Source: Schistocephalus solidus (taxonomy: Eukaryota; Platyhelminthes; Cestoda; Diphyllobothriidea; Diphyllobothriidae). Taken from it: a DNA stretch of 64,000 nucleotides. The stretch spans positions 24,923 through 88,922 of the forward strand of contig WEDG01002912.1 in the NCBI GenBank assembly GCA_017591395.1, written 5' to 3'. Of the stretch, positions 4,469-64,000 are shown one piece after another (the stretch's first letter is position 1; each line of letters begins with the position of its first letter). The notes beneath the pieces are model-generated. The model made no database searches, was not told the DNA's origin, and was given only the letters and a program-made list of their open reading frames with translations. Both the position numbers and the translations under genes were made by a program.

Positions 4469-4483
4469 AATATATATATATAT

Positions 4484-4545
<62 letters not shown>

Positions 4546-4546
4546 T
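4469..4546. repeat. (TA)n microsatellite
   Basis: A nearly pure TA dinucleotide tract with a short TACATACA interruption. It directly abuts the duplicated repeat that starts at about 4,552. A shorter (TA) tract at 5,271-5,282 lies on that repeat's other side. Confidence 0.95.
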
Positions 4547-4551
4547 CAAAC

Positions 4552-5270
4552 AGGAATAGGCGCACACCGATCTAGTTGCTTCCCGAAGCAAACAAGCTCC
4601 GTATGGGTGGCAAAGGTCACGAACAGGCAACCAATTACCAGGCCGAAGTCGGCCAATTTATAATTGCAGAGAGGAGACACGACAGAGAATATGGGCAGAT
4701 TGAGACAGTCTGTTTCGGGCTTATTCTGCCTACAATCAGCCAATCATAACCCTGATTACCAGCTGGGACTGGAAACACAAAGATACGCTCCAGTACGGCG
4801 CAGACAGTCAACACACTGGGTTAAGCAGATGGGTCACAAGTACCTAATCGAACCGAAGGTCATCAGTGCCTCACCACCACTCATTCTCTGTCGCTGCAGA
4901 TCGGTTATTTCTTCAAATAGGAAGAGGCGCACACGGATCTAGTGGCTTCCCGAAGCAAACAAGCTCCGTATGGGTGGCAAAGGTCACGAACAGGCAACCA
5001 ATTACCAGGCCGAAGTCGGCCAAGTTATAATTGCAGAGAGGAAACACGACAAAGAATATGGGCAGATTGAGACAGTCTGTTTCGGGCTTATTCTGCCTTC
5101 ATTCAACCAATCAAAACCCTGACTACCAGTTGGGAGTGGAATTGCAAAGATACGCTTGAGTACGGCTCAGACAGTCCACACACTGGGTCGATTGGCTGAA
5201 TGAAGGCAGAATAAGCCCGAAAACAGACTGTCTCAATCTGCCCATATTCTCTGTCGTGTCTCCTCTCTGC
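4552..5270 (-). repeat. direct plus inverted (fold-back) repeat unit, unclassified
   Basis: Unit 1 (4,552-4,918) and unit 2 (4,919 to about 5,190) are direct copies sharing most of their sequence; unit 1 carries about 95 bp that unit 2 lacks. The last 80 bp (5,191-5,270) is the reverse complement of 5,033-5,111, giving a hairpin with about 80-bp arms and a 79-bp loop. The block is bordered by (TA) tracts on both sides. No coding domain was recognised, although the minus strand has a short open frame (LADFGLVIGCLFVTF). The strand is tentative and taken from the adjoining hammerhead units. It may be a non-autonomous fold-back element or the body of a larger minus-strand element. Confidence 0.7.
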
Positions 5271-5303
5271 ATATATATATATAGCACAAATATGTTGCTA
5301 AGA

Positions 5304-5376
5304 GTGCAACAGGCAAGACGCAGACAGCTGTTTCACGGTCATTACCGATCATCAGTACATCATCTGCCTTGTGCAG
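5304..5376 (-). ncRNA. hammerhead ribozyme candidate 1 (type I, short stem III)
   Basis: On the minus strand the core CUGAUGA lies at 5,355-5,349 and GAAAC at 5,334-5,330. Stem II is CGGU/ACCG around an AAUG loop. Stem III is the self-complementary ACAGCUGU (5,331-5,324), which cannot form a loop alone but could pair between two RNAs. The predicted cleavage is after the C complementary to 5,323. Stem I starts GAUGUA with UGCGUC, then an internal loop, then AGGCA with UGCCU. The closing pair of stem II is U-U where G-C is usual, which may lower activity. Palindromic minimal stem III is known from Penelope-associated hammerheads. Confidence 0.68.
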
Positions 5377-5535
5377 TGAGGTACATAAACAAGCCAAACC
5401 AGTGCGTAACACTCACTAATGTGGTAAGGATCTCACTCGATCCCATTTGTCCGCCCGCCAGTTACCTACCGGCGATAAACGAACGTTGTGTCATAGGACA
5501 CAGACCATAAACATAGCACAAATATGTTGCTAAGA

Positions 5536-5608
5536 GTGCAACAGGCAAGACGCAGACAGCTGTTTCACGGTCATTACCGATCATCAGTACATCATATGCC
5601 TTGTGCAG
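5536..5608 (-). ncRNA. hammerhead ribozyme candidate 2
   Basis: Same motif, 232 bp further on: CUGAUGA at 5,587-5,581 and GAAAC at 5,566-5,562 on the minus strand, with identical stem II, palindromic stem III and first stem I segment. The only change within the motif is one base of the stem I internal loop. With unit 1 it could release a 232-nt RNA by double self-cleavage; that is inference. Confidence 0.68.
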
Positions 5609-6896
5609 TGAGGTACATAAACAAGCCAAAAAAGTGCGTAACACTCACTAATGTGGTAAGGATCTCACTCGATCCCATTTGTCCGCCCGCCAGTTACCTA
5701 CCGGCATATGATGATAAAATTAAGATAAATAAATGTTTGGCATGGCGTTAAAAAAGCTTTTATATGGTTGACAGAAAAAACATAAAATATTAGATGGGAT
5801 CCTCTCCCTCAGAGGTCACCGATTTTTTTCAAAAAGAGATTAAAAGATAAGTCAAATTTGCCAGCTCGCATATTAATCAGTACTATTCAAGAAGATAAAA
5901 TAAGCCGAAAGAGCCAAATAAAATTCCATATATATTCAAGATAAATTGAAATTTCTTAATATGTCTGAAGTCCTTATTCTATTTCGGATAATTAACAACT
6001 TGCAATATGCCAATTTTAATTCACCTAAATAACCCCATATTCGCCAAACTGGACAATCAGAAATTAGTTGGCTCGCCTAAAACTCGCTTTAGTAAGGGCG
6101 AAGTAGATGGTGCAGCAACACATGGTTACACAACATTTTAGAAAAGAAACCAAATATGCATCTTCAATGAACAGTATGTATACAAATATGCAGTTAATAT
6201 GAAAATCAAATTTCTGCCTGTTTTGCGGCCAAACAAATAATCAATAGTTGCTTTTTCACGTTTAAGGAGTTAAAACGGTGACTAAAGTCTCCCAAGTTTA
6301 GTGACCATACGCCATCTGTCTTTTTTGAATTTATGTTTTTAAAGTTTCACCACGAATTCTTAAGCCTTCTCTTCCATGCAAAATTATGATGGTTGTTATT
6401 TTTGTTGACTTATCAATTGATAAAAACAGGGCGTAGCTCATGGTTGGGAAGTAGCTTAAATTAACAATCGAATGATTCACACAGACCACTGTCAATTATT
6501 ATCCAAAAATATTGATGTTTTTATTCAAAGAATGCAATTCCTTAGATAACACTGTCCATTAAAATGCAACCACCCACATAAGTACGTTTAGGTTCATTGA
6601 GTAAATTAGCTTTATCTAGCTGACTTCTGTTTCGGAATTGCTTTAAGAGTCTTTTAAATATTCTAGTGCAAACTAATCCCCCATTCAATTTCTATAAATC
6701 GGAGTAGCTAAAATAATAAACATATGCGTTTAAGGCCTTTGAATGTAGGAAGCAATTGCATTTAAAATTATTTCATATTCTTTCGAATCCTTGCACAATA
6801 TGGGTAGCTTATACTCAAGTTAATGGCCTATTGCAGTCTAATATAGAATTCGATACTTAATTTTTTGCTTTGAATGCTAACTCATAGATCATAATC

Positions 6897-18330: not shown

Positions 18331-18754
18331 GAAGCAAGATCTGACCAGACAATTACGCAGTGAAGAATAATATGTAATTTATAACAGTTTTATGACAAAG
18401 AAATGAATCGATCATTGTTTTTTTCATATTATAGTTAAATGCTTCTTCAAATTCCGGAATATGTAAGTCAGTACTAAGTTGTCACATTTATGTATTTTGA
18501 CTGCTTAATAGTAAACATGCACAAATATTTAACTTCTTAGTGGTGTCGATCTGTGGTAAGTTCTTTTTTAATTCATTTGCGTAAACCCGAGTAAATATCA
18601 TACTCTGTGCATTGAATATAAAGCAGAAAATGATATTAAAAAGAAGCATATTAAAGAAGATGAAAGAAAAATATTTTTTTAATAAATAATATTTTCGAAG
18701 CCTTGTTTCTCCAATAAGCTACTGTGATTGAGATAGGTATTAGATTGATAAAAC
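18331..18754. other. AT-rich spacer between satellite and RTE-like element
   Basis: No feature was recognised. Satellite similarity ends near 18,330 and the LINE reading frame starts at about 18,755. Confidence 0.5.
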
Positions 18755-18757
18755 ACC

Positions 18758-20402
18758 GTGACGGAGGAGGACATGCAAAGGAGCATGGACCTCATCGCCG
18801 AAGGCTGCGCCGATTTTGGATTAACAATCAGTACAGCCAAAACGGTTGTCATGCACCAGCCGCCACCCAGCGCGGAATACAATGCTCCTCGAATCAATGT
18901 CAACGGTGCTCAACTCAAAAACGTGGAAACCTTCGCTTATCTAGGAAGCACGATGTCGCGCAACACGAGAATCAATGACGAGGTTGCCCAACGGATCTCC
19001 AAAGCTAGTCAGGCTTTCGGCCGGCTGCAGTCCTCCGTGTGGAATCGCCACTGTATTCAACTGAACACCAAACTGAAGATGTACAAGGCCGTCGTCATGT
19101 CGACACTCCTTTACGGAGCGGAAACCTGGACCGTCTACTCGAACCAAGACAGGAAGCTGAACCACTTTCATCTCAGCTGCCTTCGCAGAATACTGAAGCT
19201 GAGATGGCAAGACAGGATCCCGGACACGGAAGTCCTGGAGCGGACCGGAATCCTCAGCATCCATGCCATGCTGAGGCAAGTGCAACTGCGATGGAGCGGC
19301 CACCTGGTAAGAATGGACGACGAGCGACTACCCAAATGACTTTTCTATGGTGATGTCGCTATTGGTTCTTGCAGGCAGGGAGGTCAAAAACGACGCTACA
19401 AGGACACTTTGAAGAAATCGCTGAAGCAACTGCAAATCAACTTTGCGACCTGGGAGGACCTCGCCCAGGATAGAGCGGCATGGAGAAGATCAGTAAAGAC
19501 TGGTTCAGCAATCTATGAGGCCAACCGGATCGCCGCCGCCAAGGCCAAAAGAGCGGCACGAAAGTCACCAGCGCACCGAACCAACACCGCCAATGCCCAA
19601 ACGCTGCCAACGTGCCCGCGCCGTCAATGCGTCTTCCGCGCGCGAATCGGCCTGGTTGGACATCTTCGGACGCAATGCACCAACAATCCGACAATTGCAA
19701 TTTCTACGTCAAATTCTGCCAACCCTCCTTCTGACTCCCCTACCCTCACTCCTGGCATCAATTTTTATTACTCCCACCATCACAGAGACCGCATTTATCT
19801 ACTCATCGCCTGTTACCCCCACCACCGCCTTCACTACCACCACCACCACCACCATTAGCGATGGGGAATCTCTCCTAAGCTGGACTCAATGTGACCACAC
19901 ATTCACCTCACGCATCGGCCTGGTCGGTCACTTGCGAATACATCGTACAGAGACTGGTGAGCCAGTGCCTGGAGCACCATCACACAGCAGAGATCGTCAC
20001 CTCCACTGTCCTCACTGTCCTCGCGCATTCACTCATCGCATGGGCCTATTCGGTCACATGCGCATCCATGACAGCGGAATTCACCTCAATGCCGACAACA
20101 CCGATACACCATGCAAACCCTCCGCTCCTGCCATTCTTAGAGCCCCTGCCACCCTCACTACCATGAATGACATCCTCCCAGCCTCTACCGATTTCTCCTG
20201 CCCACACTGCGCCCGCAACTTCAACACACGCATCGGCCTGGTCGGTCACCTGCGAATCCATCGCACGGAGGCTGGTGAACCAGTGCCTGGGGCTTCGACA
20301 TGCAGTCGTCGCGCACGCCTTTACTGCCCTCACTGCTCCCGCACATTTACACACCGCATGGGCCTATTAGGACACATGCACCTCCACGAAGACCTCCGGT
20401 AA
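18758..20402 (+). pseudogene. RT C-terminal domain plus zinc-finger array, two lesions
   Basis: The frame from 18,758 starts with [19 protein letters not shown] and includes [18 protein letters not shown] and [15 protein letters not shown], the C-terminal signature of RTE-like reverse transcriptases. A TGA at 19,337-19,339 interrupts it, and the same frame then continues (KDTLKKSLKQLQ) into a first finger, RARIGLVGHLRTQC, whose cysteines are displaced. A frameshift at the (CAC)n tract near 19,840 moves the rest into another frame, ending at 20,402. There follow four fingers, alternating RIGLVGHLRIH and HRMGLLGHM types. The first of these four has lost its leading Cys; the other three keep C2H2 ligands. 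The fingers may bind nucleic acid; their role is not shown. Confidence 0.85.
19836..19856 (+). repeat. (CAC)n trinucleotide tract
   Basis: A short run of CAC repeats sits where the reading frame switches between the first finger and the following finger array. Slippage here is a simple explanation for the frameshift. Confidence 0.8.
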
Positions 20403-40765: not shown

Positions 40766-43730
40766 GACGGCGGCTAAGCGAGGGGGAAACAAACTTGGTT
40801 ATTTACAACAACCAAGTGATCCATCGTCCATTATTCTCCCCCTGGAGAGGCCCGTTCCGGATTACCACGCAGTTGGCCCAGTAAACAGGGGCTCGCGCCC
40901 GACTGTAAGCACTTTCCGAGCAAACCGAAAACTGACATGCATGTACACTAATGCACAGAGTATATTATCGAAGCTCGACGAGTTTAAGATTCATATCTGC
41001 GATCTATCTCCAGATATAATTTCCGTAACAGAAACTTGGTTGTCCCAACACGTGGACGACCGAGAGGTAAATATGGCTGGCTTCCAACTTTTTAGAAAAG
41101 ACAGGAAAAAGCGTCAAGGAGGTGGCGTACTCACATACGTGAAAAGCGAAATTACAGTTTTAGACAAAACTTATAAACTCGCGCCTACTTCCGATGCGAT
41201 ATGGCTATCCGTAAAAGTGCCAGGTACATCAAGTCTAGATGTCCTGATAGTCTACCGCCCACCGAGAAGAGACCCCGTAGCTGATGCTATCCTGCTAGAG
41301 GAACTTGGAAAAGATTGCCACACGATTGGATATCCTGATCATGGGTGACTTCAATGCGCCTCACATCGACTGGAGCTCGACCTGTGCACGTTGTTCTGAT
41401 CTAGCCTTCGACGGTTGTTTTCTGAGCACGACACTAAAGCTACGTCTCACACAGCACGTCACTTTTCCAACTAGGGTGTGCGAAGGACAACAGGCCAATT
41501 GCCTGGACCTAGTTCTCACGAAGTCGCACGACAGCATCGACGAAGTGACGTGTCTACCGCCGCTATGCAAAAGTGACCACGTGGTTCTGCGATGGGAATA
41601 CTCAATATTTTCTATACCAGCAAGACCCACAACAATCAGAAGGAATATATGGCAAGGCGATTTCGGTGGAATGAAGGCCCAACTCATGCGCACTCAGTGG
41701 GAACCTTTATTCTCTGGAAACGTAACCGAGGACTGGAAAACGTTCCGGGACATACTGCACAGGCTCATGGAAAAACACTGTCCAATTTTGAGAAAAAGGT
41801 TAACGAACAGACCGCGATGGCTTTCACAGGCCTTAAAAATCGAAGTTAACAAAAAGCGGAGATTGTGGAAAAAATCGCTTACGGACGGAACTCCTGCATC
41901 TCTAAATGCGTATAAAATGCAGAGAAATCGGGTCAAGGGCCTTATTTTTAGAACAAGACAGGCTTTCGAAGTGGACCTGCTAAACCGGGCCAACGTGAAC
42001 CCGAAACTGTTTTACGGTTACCTCAGACAGAATACACGGAACAAGGATCAGATACCCCTGCTGAGGACCGCCGAGGGCATAAACCTCACTGAAGACGGAG
42101 CGAAGGCTTATCATCTTTCGGAATTTTTCCAGTCGGTTTTCACAAAGGAAACGAGATACGATCACCCTACCGATGGCTTCGAAGTGGATACAATAGTCAA
42201 GACTGTTAATTTTACCGAGACTACTGTCCTCAAGGAACTTTTGGGGTTAAAGGAATCTAAGTCTCCGGGTCCCGATGAAGTACCTGCCAAGCTGTTGAAA
42301 GAGATCGCGAGGGAGTTGGCAAAACCACTCTCTACGCTTTTCCAAGCATCCTTCCAGACCGGAAGTCTACCAGCCGACTGGAAATCCGCATGGATTACGC
42401 TGCTTTATAAGGGTGGAAGCCGGGCCTCTGCTAACAATTATCGACCGGTCAGCCTAACTTCAGTTTGCTGCAAAATCATGGAAAAATAATTTAAGCAACA
42501 ACTAATGCAGTTCTTGAACATAACAATCTGCTATCCGAAGCCCAGCACGGTTTCCGTAGAGGTAGATCCTGCGTCACAAATTTGCTCTACTGTTTAGAAC
42601 GTTGGACTGAAGCGGTCGATAGTGGTAATACGGTGCACGCAGTCTATATAGACTTCAAAAGGCTTTTTGATAGCGTGCCGCACCACCGCCTTCTTTATAA
42701 ACTCAACCGCATAGGTGTAAGAGGTAGACTTCTGACATGGATAGAAAACTTCTTAACTGGCCGCTCACAAACTGTGCATATCAGCGACAAACAGTCGACT
42801 AAAGTTGAGGTTGAGAGTGGTGTTCCCCAAGGCTTTGTTCTCGGCCCTATACTGTTCATTGTCTACATCAACGATTGTGCCAACGAACTGAACTGCGATA
42901 TTGCCATGTTTGCCGATGATCTCAAACTTTGGCGCGTCATTCAAACTGCGGCTGATGAAGAGAACTTGCAGGCAAACTTAAATCTTCTCCAGAAATGGTC
43001 CAATGACTGGCTCTTGCCGTTTAATGAGAGCAAATGCAACATCATACGAGTCGGGAAAAGCAATCCTTCGAACCGTACGGTTTACAGTCTGAATGGCATT
43101 CCATTGAAAGAAGTGGATGTCCAAAAGGACCTTGGAGTCTGGATCACGCCTTCGCTTAAACCCTCACTACATTGCGCAAAGGTAGCGAAGTCAGCCATGT
43201 CGATTCTGTACCTCGTTTAACGAGCTTTTGCAGCCTTCACTACCGACTGCTTCGCTAAAGTCTTCGGAACATTCGTGCGGCCACAGTTGGAGTCCGGTAT
43301 CCAAGCTTGGAGACCCTGGGCTGCGAAGGACATCAACATCCTCGAAAAGGTCCAAAGGCGAGCAACCAAACTTGTCCTTGGACATGGCTCACTGCCTTAT
43401 GAAACACGGCTGTCGAGTCTCAATCTCTTTCCCTTGCACTATAGACAGCTTCGGGGGGACCTGATACTAACATTCCGCATACTACGTATCCAGGACTGTT
43501 GTCTCGTGCCAGGGGATTTCTTCGAGTTAGCAAAAACAACGAACTTGAGAGGTCATCCTCTCAAATTTTGTGTGACTGGAGCAAGGCTAAACACTCGGAA
43601 GTACTTCTTCTCCAAAAGAGTAGTCGAAGCTTGGAATAGTCTTCCTCTGGATGTTGTAATGTCAGACTCCTTGGAGGTTTTTAAGCGCAAGTTAGATCGA
43701 TATAATGGTGCGAGCTACAACACTAACTAA
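40695..43730 (+). pseudogene. family alpha ORF2: endonuclease and reverse transcriptase, three lesions
   Basis: The APE-type endonuclease starts near 40,930 (TNAQSILSKLDEF), with the catalytic ETWL near 41,030 and GDFNAPHIDW from 41,344. An extra G in the GAACTTGGAAAAG string near 41,307, absent from copy C, shifts the frame. RT follows with KSPGPDEVPAKLLK (about 42,260), NNYRPVSLTS (42,430), a second frameshift with stops at 42,487-42,495, IDFKRLFDSVPHHRL (42,650), SGVPQGFVLGPILF (42,820) and FADDLKLW (42,910). A third shift lies near 43,215, after which the C-terminal part runs to 43,730. Unusual residues are RLFD for KAFD and GFVLGP for GSVLGP. Catalytic aspartates are kept. Confidence 0.9.
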
Positions 43731-54500: not shown

Positions 54501-54811
54501 CGATCATTCCGAATGTAATCGTAGCCTAGAATAGAGAGTTCGGAGTCGGATACAGAGGGTGTTGCCCATGTCTCTGTAAATATTACAATGTCGGGGCGGT
54601 GGATGAAAACCAGAGTCTGGAGCAAAGGCATCTTATAAAAAAGAGATCTGGAATTGAGGACGATAAGTTTAAGTGGGCACGTTTTTGGTTTCTGAAACGG
54701 GACAGTTAGGCTGTCAGGGTGACTGCCTTCGGTCAAAGAAATGTTCTTTTCACTTGAACTTGTCATTCCTGCCATATCTAACTTACTACCGTCAATACAT
54801 ACCGTTAGCAT
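51546..54811 (-). mobile_element. CR1-like LINE, family gamma, with 5' monomer array
   Basis: A minus-strand element with endonuclease at about 54,700-53,975 and RT at about 53,530-52,320. Its 3' end, read on the minus strand, is CTGGCAATAAATAAATAAAA at about 51,565-51,546, a simple-repeat tail as expected for CR1-type LINEs. At the 5' side the coding region runs straight into the 88-bp tandem array at 54,763-56,213. It is only moderately damaged, with large open frames surviving, so it is one of the younger elements here. Confidence 0.88.
51600..54811 (-). pseudogene. family gamma endonuclease-reverse transcriptase, altered catalytic box
   Basis: The first Met after the array is at 54,766. 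The endonuclease shows LNSRSLFYKMPLLQ, FTETWA, VYRPPNAS, AGDFNLPEVHW (54,260) and NSDHTIVLS. One in-frame TGA near 54,280 splits it. RT follows with SPGPDGVPVSVLKAD (53,370), LPIPKHGRPSSFDDFGP (53,200), YFDFTKAFDRVDHDLL (52,990) and SGVIQGSVLGPLLF (52,820). Frameshifts lie near 53,080 and 52,780. The catalytic box reads YAEDLKVAYR at about 52,740: the first Asp of YADD is Glu (GAA), expected to abolish or strongly reduce activity. The C-terminal part continues to about 51,680. Confidence 0.87.
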
Positions 54812-56213
54812 TGCCTTCGTCAGTTCAACATGTCAAATCACATACGCATGTCATTACTGCCAAATCTAACTTATTACCGCCAATACCTACCGTTATACGT
54901 CCCTTCGTCAGTTCACCATGTCAAATCACAGACGCATGTCATTACTGCCATATCTAACATACTACCGTCAATACCTATCGTTAGAAGTCCCTTTGTCATT
55001 TCACCATGTCAACTCACAGACGCATGTCATTACTGCCATATCGAACTTACTACCGTCAATACCTACCGTTAGAAGTCCCTTCGTCAGTTCACCATGTCAA
55101 CCCACCGGCACATGTCATTCCTGGCATATCTAACTTACCACCGTCAATACCTACCGTTAGCTGTTCCTTCGTCAGTTCAAAATGTCAACTCACAGACGCA
55201 TGTCATTACTGCTATTTCAAACTTACTACCGTCAATACCTGCCATTAGCAGTCCCTTCGTCAGTTCACCATGTCAACTCACCGACACATGTCATTTCTGT
55301 CATATCTAACATACTACCATCAATACCTACCGTTAGCAGTCCCTTCGTCAATTTCACCATGTCTACACACCGACACATGTCATTCCTGTCCTATCAAACT
55401 TACTACCGTCAATACCTACCCTAGCGGTCCCTTCGTGAGTTCACCATGTCAACTCACAGACGCAGTTCATTACTGCCATATCTAACTTACTACCGTCAAT
55501 ACCTTCGTTTAGCAGTCCATTCATCAGTTCACCATGTCAACTCAGAGAAGAATGTCATTACTGCCATATATAAATTATTACCGTCAATACCTCTCGTTAG
55601 CAGTTCCTTCGTCAGTTCACCATGTCAACTCCCAGTCGCATGTCACTACTGCCATATCTAACTGACTACCGTCAATACCTACCGTTAGCAGTCCCCTTGT
55701 CAGTTCACCATATGTACACACCGACACATGTCATTCCTGCCATATCGAACTTACTACCGTCAATACATTCCGTTAGAAGTCCCTTCGTAAGTTCACCATG
55801 TCTACTCACCGACACATGTCATTCCTGCCATATCTTACTTACTACCGTCAATACCTACCGTTAGCAATCCCTTCGTCAGTTCAAACATGTCAAACTCACA
55901 GACGCATGTCATTACTGCCATTCCTAACATTCTACCGTCAATACCTTCCGTTAGCAGTCCCTTCGTCAGTTCACCATGTCTACTCACCGACACATGTCAT
56001 TCCTGCCATATCTAAAATACTACCATCAATACCTACCGTTAGCAATCCCTTCGTCAGTTCAACATGTCAATTCACAGACGCGTGTCATTACTGCCATATC
56101 TAACATACTACCGTCAATACCTACCGTTAGCAGTTCCTTTGTCAGTTCACCATGTCTACTCACCGACACATGTCATTACTGCCATACCTAACTTACTACC
56201 GTCAATGTAGCTT
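54763..56213. repeat. 88-bp tandem array, about 16.5 monomers
   Basis: The CATGTC block starts at 54,829, 54,917 and 55,005 and continues every 88 bp (plus or minus one) to about 56,151. Two monomer subtypes mix: one with CTCACAGACGCATGTCATTACTG and one with CTCACCGACACATGTCATTCCTG. Because 88 is not a multiple of three and the unit has few stops, overlapping open frames of 71-101 codons appear in all plus-strand phases; they are by-products. The first monomer merges into the start of the family gamma LINE coding region, which suggests a LINE 5' monomer promoter array. Confidence 0.93.
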
Positions 56214-60049: not shown

Positions 60050-63000
60050 ACAGCTTTCAGCTAGTACCTATTTCGAATGAACGGTATAATATATGTGCCA
60101 TATACGATTCATACTAATATTGGTACATATTGTTTGTAGATTGGGCATTACGTGGTTATCCTACAGTGGCTGATTGTCTTCGACCCAAATGTTCATTTAA
60201 ATTTCGGGTCTGACCCAAATAAAGTCATGTTCAAATAATCTAACTCCATGTCCTGCACTTCATAATTACAGAAATTATTTCCTTGATTATTGTCTGAAAA
60301 CCGCATAAAGAACGCTGATGGACTCACTGAGAAGACGAAACCCTCAATGCTGCGTCCCGCAGCTGCAAAAACATTGGCGAAACACGTGTCTAGGCTTTTA
60401 GCTAGTACCTATGTCAGTAGAACGGTATAATTTATGTGCCATTTACGATTCATACAACTTGTTGTACTACTTGTTTTAATAATGGATATTACATGGTTGT
60501 TTCACAGTGGAAGATTGTCTTCGACCCAAATGTAAATTGAAATTTTGGGTATGACCTAAAAAGTCGTGTCCTGCACTAAATAAATTCAGAAATTTTTTTC
60601 CTTGATTATTCTCTGGTGTCCGTATGCTAGAATCCACATAGAAAACGATGAAGAACCCTCCAGGGAGAGGAACCCTCGCTGCTACGTCACGTAGCTGCAG
60701 AAAATCGGCAAAACACGTGTCCGGGTTTTAAGCTAGTACTTATGTTGGAAGTACGGTATTATATATATGCCATTTACGATTCATACTACTTAAAGTAATA
60801 CTTGCTTAATAATTGGACAATTAGTTGTAATTCCACAGTGTTTTATTTTCTTCAAACCTACATTTTCAATGACATTTCGGGTCAGACCAAATAAAGTCAT
60901 GTCCGAATCATCTGACTCCCATGTCCAGGACTTAATAATTTCAGAAATTATTTGCTTGATTATTTTCTGGAGTCCATATACCCGAAACCGCATAGGGAAC
61001 GCTGGGGGACCCACAAAGGAGCCGAACTCCTCATTGTTGCGACACGCTGCAGCAGAAACTTTTGCGAAACACGTGTCTTGGTTATTATCAAAGATCTATG
61101 TCGGACGCACGACATAACATATGTAACATATACGATTCATAATAGTTGTAGTACACCTTGTTTGTAGAATTGACATTACGTTGTCACTCCACAGTAATTG
61201 ATTATCTTCGACACAAATTTTCATTAAAAGTTCGGGTCTGACCCTAAAAGGTCATGTTCGAATAATCTTACTCCATGTCCTGCTTTCCATAATTTCAGAA
61301 ATTATTTCCTTGATTATTCTCTGGAGTCCATATACTGGAAACCGCATAGAGAACGCTGATGGACTCACTGAGAAGACGAACACCCTCGATGCTGCGTCAC
61401 GCAGCTGCAGAAACATTGGCGAAACACGTGTCTGGGCTTTTAGCTAGTACCTATGTCGGTAGTACCGTATAATTTATGTGCCATATACGTTTCATACAAC
61501 TTGTTGTACTACTTGTTTGAATAATAGACATTTCATGGTTGCTCTACAGTGGTAGATTGTCTTCGACCCAAATGTAAATTGAAATTTTGGGTCTGTCCTT
61601 AAAAGTCGTGTCCTGCACTAAATAATTTCAGAAATTGTTTCCTTGATTATTCTCTGGTGTCCATATGCTAGAATCCGCATAGAAAACGATGAACAAACCC
61701 GACTAAGGAGAGGAAACGTCGCTGCTACGTCACGCAGCTGCAGAAAAATCGGCAAAACACGTGTCTGGGCTTTAAGCTAGTACTTATGTCGGAATTACGG
61801 TATTATATATGTGCCATGTATCATTCATACTACTTATAGTATTAATTGTTTAAAGAATGGGCATTTCGTGGTTATTCCACAGTAGTTGATTGTCTTCGAC
61901 CCAAACGTTCATTGAAAATGCAGGTCTGACCCTAAAAAGTCATGTCTGCAATATATAATTTTAGAAATTATTTCCTAGATTATTCTCTGGAGTCCATATA
62001 CCAGAAACCGCAAAGAGAACGCTTGGGGAACTACTGAGGAGACGAAACCCTCTTTGCTGCGTCACGCAGCTGCAGAAACATTGGCGAAACATGTATAAAG
62101 GGTGAAAGCTAGAACCTATGTCGGAAGTACGGTATTATATATATGCCATATACGATTCATACTACTTAACGTACTTCTTGTTTAAAGATTGGACATTAAG
62201 TTGTAATTCCACAGTGTTTTATTGTCTTAAACCCAAATGTTCATTGATATTTCGGTTCTGACCCAATAAAGTCATGTCCGAATCATCTGACTCCATGTTC
62301 AGGTCTTAATAATTTCAGAAATTATTTTCTTAATTAATTTCGGGAGTCCTTATACCCAAAACCGCATAGGGAACCCTGGGGGACCCACTGAGGAGTCGAA
62401 CCCCTCGATGCTGCGTCACGCAGCTGCAGAAAAATTAACGAAACACGTGTCTGGGCTTTGAACTGGTACCTATGTCAGAAGTACTGTACATTTTATGTGC
62501 CATATACGATTCATACTTTTTGTTGTACTACTTGTTTGAATAATGGACATTACATAGTCGATCTACAGTGGTAGATTGTCTTCGACCCAAATGTTAATTG
62601 AAATTTTTGGTATGACCTTAAAAGTCGTGTCCTGCACTAAATAATTTCAGAAATTGTTTCCTTGATTATTCTCTGGTGTCCATATACCAGAAACCGCATA
62701 GGGAACGCTGGGGGACCCAGTGAGGAGCCGAAGCCCTCGTTGTTGCGTCACGCAGCAGCAGAAACTTTGGCAAAACACGAGTCTGGGCTTTTATCTAAGG
62801 CCTTTGTCGGAATTACGGTATAATATATGTGCCATATACGATTCATACTACTTGTAGTACTGCTTGTTTGTAGAATGGGCATGACGTGGTTTTTTTAAAA
62901 GTGGTTGATTGACTTTGACCCAAATTAACATTTAAATTCCTGGTCTGACACAAAAAAAGGTATGTCCGATTCATCTGGCGCCATGTGCTGCACTTTATTA

Positions 63001-63213
63001 TTACATAAATTATTTCCTTGATTATTCTCTGGAGTCCATATACCAGAACGCGCATAGAGAACGCTGAGGGGCCCACTGAGGTGCCGAACCCCACGTTGCT
63101 GCGTCAAGCAGCAGCAGATACATCAGCGAAACGCGTGTTTGGGCTTTAAGCTTATACCTAGGTCGAAATTAGGGTATAATATATGTGCCATATATGATTC
63201 ATACTACTTTTAG
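60050..63213. repeat. satellite array, two monomer classes (about 332 and 355 bp)
   Basis: The AACACGTGTC landmark or its decayed form occurs with its core at 60,383, 60,714, 61,070, 61,425, 61,758, 62,090, 62,444, 62,776 and 63,132. Spacings are 331, 356, 355, 333, 332, 354, 332 and 356, so there are two discrete classes. They differ by about 24 bp around AAGTCATGTCCGAATCATCTGA, which short monomers lack. Each monomer also has TATAATATATGTGCCATATACG, a GCTGCGTCACGCAGC palindrome and TTTCCTTGATTATTCTCTGG. About nine full monomers and one truncated one are present. Confidence 0.93.
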
Positions 63214-64000
63214 TGGCTGGCTACCAACTTTTTAGAAAAGACAGGAAAGAGCGTAAAGGAGGTGGCGTACTCACATACGTGAAAAGCGAAATTACAGTTT
63301 TAGACAAAACTTATAAACTCGCGCCTACTTCCGAGGCGATATGGCTATCCGTAAAAAGTGCCAGGTACATCAAGTCTAGATGTCCTGACAGTCTACCGAC
63401 CACCGAGAAGAGACCCCGTAGCTGATGCTTACCTGCTAGAGGAACTTGAAAAGATTGCCACACGGTTGGATATCCTGATCATGGGTGACTTCAATGCGCC
63501 TCACATCGACTGGAGCTCGACCTGTGCACATAGTTCTGATCTAGCCTTCGACGGTTGTTTTTCTGAGCACGACACTAAAGCTACGTCTCACACAGCACGT
63601 CACTTTTTCCAACCAGGGTGTGCGAAGGACAACAGGCCAATTGCCTGGACCTAGTTCTCACGAAGTCGCACGACAGCATCGACGAAGTGTCGTGTCTACC
63701 GCCGCTAGGCAAAAAGTGACCACGTGGTAATGCGATGGGAGTACTCACTATTTTTCTATACCAGCAAGACCCACAACAATCAGAAGGAATATATGGCAAG
63801 GCGATTTCGGTGGAATGAGGGCCGAACTCATGCGCACCCAGTGGGAACCTTTATTCTTTGGAAACGTAACCGAGGACTGGGAAACGTTCCGGGACATACT
63901 GCACAGGCTCATGGAAAAAAACACTGTCCAATTTTTGAGAAAAAAAGGTTAACGAACAGACCGCGATGGCTTTCGCAGGCCTTAAAAATTCGAAGTTAAC
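63214..64000 (+). mobile_element. CR1-like LINE, family alpha, copy C (5' truncated, cut by window edge)
   Basis: From TGGCTGGCTACC at 63,214 onward it matches copy B from about 41,070, in the endonuclease. The satellite stops at this exact point, so either the LINE inserted 5'-truncated into the satellite or two contigs meet here. Base substitutions relative to copy B are few, but many A or T runs are one base longer. Confidence 0.9.
63214..64000 (+). pseudogene. family alpha endonuclease, repeatedly frame-shifted
   Basis: The frame starts within AGYQLFRKDRKERKGGG, continues to WLSVK near 63,354 and is shifted by an extra A. The next frame holds GTSSLDVLTVYRPPRRD, EELEKIATRLDILIMGDFN and APHIDWSS; a further extra T near 63,560 breaks it. 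More shifts follow every 50-100 bp. Unlike copy B, GAACTTGAAAAG here has no extra G, so the EELEKIATR region reads through. The catalytic ETW part is missing because of the truncation. Confidence 0.88.

What the first reader, a model, noticed from the sequence alone, without database searches (positions are those of the whole stretch)
5284..5708. Tandem 232-bp repeat with a hammerhead ribozyme in each unit
On the minus strand both units carry CUGAUGA, a stem II (CGGU-AAUG-ACCG), GAAAC, a palindromic stem III (ACAGCUGU) and an extended stem I with an internal loop. This is seen in the sequence. Tandem units of a few hundred bases with one type I hammerhead each are known as retrozymes and as Penelope pseudo-LTRs; such units can give circular RNAs. 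Odd points are the U-U pair at the base of stem II and the stem III with no loop, which would need dimerisation.
Basis: partly seen in the sequence, partly recalled or inferred. Interest (0 to 1): 0.88.

Follow-up and report, generated by a model that had tools for sequence, protein, structure and literature searches.

The report
Tapeworm hammerhead-ribozyme retrozyme at TA repeats
The repeat is a real and very abundant retrozyme (a tiny mobile element that carries a self-cleaving RNA motif) in a tapeworm genome, and the way its copies end in TA repeats suggests how such elements insert themselves, probably copied from an RNA circle by a Penelope-type reverse transcriptase.

Summary
Confirmed, and richer than reported. 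Window 5284-5705 (minus strand) is 1.8 units of a 232-bp non-LTR retrozyme with one type I hammerhead per unit. A strict descriptor finds these two sites and none in 100 random windows; Rfam finds no hammerhead. The host genome holds 2580 core matches, control 0, in arrays of up to 38 pieces. Animal retrozymes are published, so this is a new member of a known kind.

New as far as my searches show: array 3' ends join (TA)n tracts at two fixed unit positions, A and B (39 of 49 exactly, 43 within 4 nt), the two best separate annealing sites for a (TA)n primer. 5' ends scatter. Of 19 outward junction pairs 18 are A+B. This fits target-primed reverse transcription of a template with one A and one B site; copies being multimers, most simply a 232-nt circle. 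A Penelope-like element of the same genome has a minimal hammerhead, an inverted piece and a (TA)n 3' end. A second, 367-bp hammerhead-like family adjoins the finding. Cleavage and circularity are untested.

The parts
5284..5515 (-). retrozyme family 1, unit 1 (full 232-bp unit)
   Evidence: TRF; differs from the majority sequence of 132 full units at 5 positions
5516..5705 (-). retrozyme family 1, unit 2, 5'-truncated at unit position 43 (190 nt)
5305..5375 (-). type I hammerhead of unit 1; predicted cut 3' of the complement of 5323
   Evidence: own covariance model 102.4 bits (unit 1 is one of the six rows it was built from); descriptor; cut position
5537..5607 (-). type I hammerhead of unit 2; predicted cut 3' of the complement of 5555
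   Evidence: own model 104 bits (its letters equal the majority row of the model); descriptor; cut position
5271..5283 (.). (TA)n tract shared by the 3' end of family 1 (site A) and the 3' end of the inverted copy of family 2
   Evidence: sequence
4538..4821 (-). family 2 (367-bp unit), partial unit whose 3' end joins the (TA)n tracts at 4470-4537
4822..5188 (-). family 2, full 367-bp unit
   Evidence: 222 matches in the genome, a lower bound
5190..5277 (+). family 2, inverted head-to-head copy whose 3' end runs into the (TA)n tract
4687..4758 (-). hammerhead-like site of family 2 (departs from the consensus core)
   Evidence: family-1 model, 21.2 bits, E 0.0026; not found by the strict descriptor
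5054..5125 (-). hammerhead-like site of family 2, second copy (weak)
   Evidence: family-1 model, 14.1 bits, E 0.23; not found by the strict descriptor

Best explanation
The finding is a non-LTR retrozyme of a tapeworm close to Schistocephalus. A multimeric transcript of the minus strand cuts itself at each hammerhead into 232-nt monomers, which are closed to circles (published for other animals; inferred here). A nicked (TA)n microsatellite then anneals to the RNA at site A (UAUAUAUAUG, unit position 1) or site B (UGUUUAUGUA, position 125) and primes reverse transcription, which goes round the circle many times and stops at variable points. If both DNA ends prime, one takes A and the other B, and the two cDNAs meet head to head. 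Shown here: the hammerhead motif, the copy number, fixed 3' and scattered 5' ends, the (TA)n junctions, the A+B rule in the sample read, and a Penelope-like element with a similar 3' end. Inferred: self-cleavage, circularity of the template, and that the Penelope-like enzyme does the copying.
For: Motif: descriptor 2 hits against 0 in 100 random windows; 194 of 209 hammerhead copies in the stretches read keep the core pattern; the hammerhead region is better conserved than the rest of the unit in 5 of 5 diverged copies (in L061 the rest includes a 52-nt deletion). Spread: 2580 core matches, reversed control 0. 3' ends: A 24 (+2 within 4 nt), B 15 (+2 within 4 nt), other 6, of 49; 25 5' ends scattered over positions 12-216. 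43 of 49 3' ends have (TA)4+ in the last 10 nt or the next 30 nt; 0.3% of 30-nt stretches of the window have it. Genome-wide junction counts: A 268 against control 2, B 143 against control 1. Sites A and B are the two best separate annealing positions for a (TA)n primer; the third, about 221, fits the two ends at 226 (a simple score, made after the ends were known). Inverted arrays: 11 of 11 with both ends seen carry a B or near-B end, against 6 of 26 single arrays (Fisher 1.4e-5). Listed genome places: 18 of 19 outward junction pairs are A+B, 1 A+A, 0 B+B, where 45% A+B is expected (p 6e-6; 16 of 17 outside the first sample). Both arms exceed one unit in 4 of 12 inverted arrays (L010, L018, L058, L069), and in 7 of 12 the 5' ends meet with 1-3 nt overlap. 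PLE: RVT_1 and GIY-YIG, inverted piece and 3' end at (AT)11, minimal hammerhead; pLTR ends share the (TA)n tract with a retrozyme in 7 of 37 stretches.
Against: No Rfam hammerhead match. No pair has changes on both sides in the 6 sequences counted. The minimum-energy fold of the 71-nt motif forms stems I and II but pairs CUG with CAG instead of stem III, and the full-unit fold does not show the ribozyme. No RNA data were available. One A+A pair exists, and 6 of 49 3' ends lie elsewhere. For family 2 the annealing score singles out its ends only weakly: other positions tie. The outer end of the inverted piece of the C1673 PLE is not in a (TA)n tract, and the PLE copies read (2 of 5 GIY-YIG places) are broken; no intact one was sought. 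The arrays read are not a random sample: exact cores on low-numbered contigs and units most like the window copy.
Confidence: 0.8

Rival explanations
1. It is an ordinary satellite DNA: arrays spread and homogenise by unequal exchange or by reinsertion of DNA circles, and the hammerhead is a passenger.
For: Long, nearly identical arrays (37 identical full units in L019); few substitutions shared by all units of an array.
Against: Dispersed insertions with two fixed 3' ends, scattered 5' ends, and inverted A+B arrays; the ribozyme region is conserved above the rest of the unit.
Confidence: 0.07
2. Target-primed reverse transcription is right, but the template is a linear multimeric transcript, not a circle; A+B pairing reflects a preferred spacing of two priming sites.
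For: Multimeric transcripts must exist as precursors (inference); a spacing rule cannot be excluded with the data here.
Against: A linear multimer offers many A and many B sites, so A+A and B+B should be common; 1 and 0 of 19 pairs were seen.
Confidence: 0.2
3. The enzyme is a LINE (non-LTR) reverse transcriptase, not a Penelope-like one; the window itself holds LINE-like open frames.
For: LINEs also give 5' truncation and twin-primed inversions (recalled); Exo_endo_phos_2 and RVT_1 frames at 41299-43220.
Against: The PLE read here ends in (TA)n and has a head-to-head piece; head-to-head copies, partial tandems and simple AT-rich targets are described for PLEs (PMC3846280, passages). The 3' ends of LINEs here were not examined.
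Confidence: 0.25
4. The inverted arrays are artefacts of sequencing or assembly.
For: Inverted chimeras are common in some libraries (recalled).
Against: An artefact of that kind folds a molecule back on itself and should give A+A or B+B; 18 of 19 pairs are A+B.
Confidence: 0.04

Closest known systems
Metazoan non-LTR retrozymes (Cervera and de la Pena 2020, PMC7229834)
   Same: One type I hammerhead per tandem unit of a few hundred bp, dimers to long multimers, low G+C (45% here), thousands of copies in a genome; platyhelminths are named there among the carriers.
   Different: The main text holds none of the words inverted, head-to-head, truncat-, junction or AT-rich; fixed A and B 3' ends at (TA)n and A+B inverted arrays are described here. 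Its supplement was not available to me.
Schistosoma hammerhead repeats (SMalpha-like W-elements, PMC8490949)
   Same: Flatworm tandem repeats with hammerhead sequences in four W-element families; one, of 335 bp, resembles SINE-like SMalpha (passages).
   Different: 'Retrozyme' does not occur in that paper's main text. No sequence comparison was made here.
Penelope-like elements with minimal hammerheads in pLTRs
   Same: Tandem and head-to-head copies, AT-rich targets, hammerheads; a PLE of this genome ends in (TA)n.
   Different: They encode RT and GIY-YIG endonuclease; the 232-bp unit encodes neither, and its hammerhead has a longer stem I and a stem III.
Axolotl HHR_Amex2 retrozyme (PMC7229834)
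   Same: U U mismatch at the base of stem II and a stem III of two base pairs with a tetraloop.
   Different: 350-bp unit, vertebrate host.
Plant LTR retrozymes (described in PMC7229834 and PMC7761336; PMC4918200 itself seen only in a search listing)
   Same: Non-autonomous, hammerheads, circular RNA (circularity not tested here).
   Different: Type III hammerhead, LTRs, PBS and PPT, 4-bp target duplications; the unit here has a type I hammerhead, and LTR signals were not searched for.

Membership tests
metazoan non-LTR retrozyme | tandem unit of about 150-450 bp | tested here: met
   232 bp
metazoan non-LTR retrozyme | type I hammerhead in each unit | tested here: met
   descriptor; 194 of 209 copies keep the core pattern. 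The Rfam model does not find it
metazoan non-LTR retrozyme | many dispersed copies, dimers to large multimers | tested here: met
metazoan non-LTR retrozyme | no coding capacity, no LTR/PBS/PPT, low G+C | tested here: inconclusive
   G+C 0.453; no frame of 150 aa or more at the locus; PBS and PPT were not searched for
metazoan non-LTR retrozyme | self-cleaving and circular RNA in the animal | not testable with these tools
   needs RNA
metazoan non-LTR retrozyme | target site duplications longer than 4 bp (when present) | tested here: inconclusive
   most ends lie in (TA)n, where a duplication cannot be recognised
Penelope-like element pLTR | pLTRs flanking an RT + GIY-YIG frame | tested here: not met
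   no frame of 150 aa or more at 4538-5705; the PLE found elsewhere has another pLTR
type I hammerhead ribozyme | CUGANGA - stem II - GAAA - stem III - NUH cut, open stem I | tested here: met
   U.U at 10.1-11.1 departs from the usual G-C (recalled)
type I hammerhead ribozyme | self-cleavage activity | not testable with these tools
   no assay

The most novel reading that the evidence does not exclude
Animal retrozymes move by target-primed, rolling-circle reverse transcription of a monomeric RNA circle at (TA)n microsatellites, carried out by a Penelope-like enzyme: the circle carries two built-in primer-landing sites, each target DNA end takes a different one, and a genome therefore keeps a readable A+B record that the template was a circle. 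Template jumps between two retrozyme families occur on the way (L019).
Probability: 0.45. Interest if true: 0.78.

Novelty: new member of a known kind. Interest (0 to 1): 0.62.

Why it matters
A 2020 review of these elements (PMC7761336, passages) says that the repeats of metazoan retrozymes show no conserved motif from which the autonomous retrotransposon that moves them could be deduced. Here the ends of the copies give two clues: (TA)n targets shared with a Penelope-like element of the same genome, and an A+B rule that is hard to get from anything but a template with one site of each kind. Both can be tested in other retrozyme-bearing genomes from assemblies alone, and in a cell-free reaction.

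Tried and rejected
Rfam at gathering and permissive thresholds: no hammerhead. RF00163 on the genome: empty, but controls empty too. Exact core in IMG/VR: 0. Third hammerhead candidate at L061:732: rejected because the flanks read offer no stem I (by eye). Covariation on 6 rows: no double changes, uninformative. Array-private substitutions as a test of circle against multimer: too few; one array (L016) has one shared by its two full units. My first end classifier put B ends whose TA tract had been taken into the match under 'other'; corrected, and only one search is used for counts of end types. Three stretches thought to share flanks with others (L022, L062, L074) were dropped in a second count with the same result; L062 later proved to lie beside a PLE copy that differs from that at L021. 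The two arrays of L015 were counted as single arrays although they may be one inverted insertion with a 179-nt filler. One search counts only copies that cover nearly the whole 93-nt segment. A genome-wide count of PLE 3' ends at (TA)n did not complete.

Full report
What was checked. The window lies in contig C2413 of a 603.7-Mb assembly. The named matches listed for a reverse-transcriptase frame at 18752-19339 are from Sparganum, Schistocephalus and Spirometra; Schistocephalus solidus entries reach 87% identity. The host is therefore probably a diphyllobothriid tapeworm near Schistocephalus (inference).

The repeat. TRF reports a 232-bp period with 1.8 copies. Each copy carries, on the minus strand, a type I hammerhead: stem I GAUGUA/UGCGUC, an internal loop and a second helix AGGCA/UGCCU, core CUGAUGA, a U.U opposition, stem II CGGU/ACCG with loop AAUG, core GAA, the palindrome ACAGCUGU as stem III, and the cut after C. 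A strict descriptor finds these two sites only, on either strand, and none in 100 random windows. Rfam finds no hammerhead. My own model gives 104 and 102.4 bits to the two units, but it was built from this family, unit 1 included, so this is not independent. The minimum-energy fold of the motif has stems I and II but not stem III; the linear unit folds only somewhat better than shuffles (z -2.0). In five diverged copies the 71-nt ribozyme region is 89-99% identical to the majority sequence against 66-86% for the rest (the 66% is L061, which has a 52-nt deletion). This suggests that the ribozyme is what is kept.

Copy number and sample. The 26-nt core with up to 3 mismatches occurs 2580 times, reversed control 0. 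They hold 39 arrays of 1 to 38 unit pieces. The window unit differs from the majority sequence of 132 full units at 5 positions.

Ends. Of 49 3' ends not cut by a stretch border, 24 are TTTGTGC|TATATA (site A) and 2 lie within 4 nt; 15 are GGCTT|ATATAT (site B) and 2 lie within 4 nt; 6 are elsewhere. 25 5' ends lie between unit positions 12 and 216. Positions 43-48 recur (6 of 25), at the hairpin CGCCGGTAGGTAACTGGCGGGCG, where a reverse transcriptase might stop (inference; L021 and L022 share flanks). (TA)4+ lies in the last 10 or next 30 nt of 43 of 49 3' ends, and in the next 30 nt of 13 of 25 5' ends, against 0.3% of 30-nt stretches of the window. Genome-wide the A junction occurs 268 times (control 2) and the B junction 143 times (control 1). 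When a (TA)n primer is slid along the unit RNA, the best position is 1 (9.5 of 10), the next separate one is 125 (8) and the third is about 221 (7.5): site A, site B and the two ends at 226. The score is simple and was made after the ends were known. On family 2 the same score puts the observed end regions (about 154 and 274) at the top, 6.5 of 10, but positions 270 and 37 tie with them.

Inverted arrays. 12 of 39 arrays are head to head with 3' ends outward. In the 11 with both ends seen, 8 are A+B (one with a near-B end) and 3 are B (one near-B) plus another end; none is A+A or B+B (re-pairing P 0.003; B or near-B ends in 11 of 11 against 6 of 26 single arrays, Fisher 1.4e-5). In 7 of these 12 the 5' ends overlap by 1-3 nt. 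A (TA)n tract at the centre, as two separate insertions would leave, is seen only in L009, where the plus arm starts with the unit's own TATATATAT; so these look like single events. Independently, among the 100 listed A places (of 268) and the 52 listed B places in the same contig range (of 143 in the genome), 19 outward pairs of neighbours lie within 10 kb (92-3304 nt apart): 18 A+B, 1 A+A, 0 B+B, where 45% A+B is expected (p 6e-6); 16 of 17 hold for pairs outside the first sample. The DNA between these 17 was not read. One template with a single A and a single B site explains this; because the cDNAs are multimers (both arms above 232 nt in 4 of 12 loci), that template is most simply a monomer circle. 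A spacing rule on a linear multimer is not excluded.

Neighbour. Directly left of the finding, 4538-5277 is a second family: 367-bp unit, two minus-strand copies and an inverted plus-strand copy, both outer 3' ends in (TA)n. My model finds a hammerhead-like site in it (21.2 bits, E 0.0026, and 14.1 bits, E 0.23). Read across the copies in hand it is about GAUUGG-CUGAAUGA-AGGCAGAAUAAGCCC-GAAACAGACUGU-C/A-UCAAUC: the core has one extra A, the base of stem II is A.C, and the two minus-strand window copies depart further (UUGAAUGA, CUGAUUGU). The strict descriptor does not find it, so activity is uncertain. 222 matches were scored in the genome, a lower bound, with an array of about 17 units at C1931; four listed partial copies end at unit position 283, next to the window's 284. 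In L019 a 38-piece array of family 1 is joined at its third 3' site (226) to the 5' end of a family 2 array on the same strand, as a template jump would give (inference).

Candidate enzyme. GIY-YIG (PF01541) gives 5 matches in the genome, E 3e-4 to 1e-3; I read 2. At C1673 it lies behind a 322-aa RT frame, in another frame (RVT_1 2e-11, GIY-YIG 3.7e-6): a Penelope-like element, broken. Its pLTR is repeated directly (97.5%), a head-to-head piece lies at its 5' side (98.6%), and its 3' end joins (AT)11; the outer end of the inverted piece is not in (TA)n. The pLTR holds a minimal hammerhead, UUUCGU-CUGACGA-stem II-GAAA-AUUC-ACGAG; 10 of the 12 pLTR pieces listed keep CUGANGA...GAAA. pLTR pieces are found in 9 of 37 retrozyme stretches, and in 7 of these (5 if L021/L022 and L073/L074 count once each) the PLE piece and the retrozyme border one (TA)n tract. 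In some copies the pLTR runs on by about 35-40 nt before the tract, so the PLE too has more than one 3' end.

Literature. PMC7229834: parts 1-4 of 6 read, and two term searches; it describes 150-450-bp units, up to 62-mers, platyhelminths, axolotl HHR_Amex2 with the U U mismatch, RtcB circularisation, and PLEs as strong candidates. PMC7761336, PMC3846280, PMC3088659 and PMC8490949: passages. Searches of the held library for hammerhead + retrozyme + microsatellite (1 paper, on Nicotiana, not read), retrozyme with target site, retrozyme/hammerhead with tapeworm or flatworm, and hammerhead ribozyme with cestode (3 papers, not read) showed, in the titles and abstract starts listed, no report of (TA)n targeting or of tapeworm retrozymes. 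Subscription papers are mostly not held and supplements were not available.

Verdict. The object is a new member of a known kind. The value lies in the ends: they make the open question of how animal retrozymes move directly testable from assemblies.

Noticed in passing
window 4538-5277: Second retrozyme-like family (367-bp unit, hammerhead-like site with an extra core A), also ending in (TA)n on both sides.
   Followed up: partly
L019 around 785 (C191:216484): Family 1 array of 38 pieces fused directly to a family 2 array on the same strand, as if the reverse transcriptase had changed template.
   Followed up: partly
L075, L077, L078 (C1673:280900-286300): Broken Penelope-like element with a minimal hammerhead in its pLTR, a head-to-head piece and a (TA)n 3' end; other pLTR copies run on by about 35-40 nt before their (TA)n tract.
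   Followed up: partly
window 60053-63214: 332-bp tandem repeat, 9.2 copies; a similar sequence adjoins (TA)n tracts in 7 of the stretches read.
   Followed up: no
window 54761-56206: 88-bp tandem repeat, 16.4 copies, overlapping one end of an open frame with a weak Exo_endo_phos match.
   Followed up: no
window 18752-20402: Reverse-transcriptase-like frame (tapeworm family) followed by frames one of which has C2H2 zinc fingers.
   Followed up: no
L061 732-770 (+): CTGATGA...GAAAC...GTC motif with a 6-bp stem II but no stem I; probably chance or coding.
   Followed up: partly
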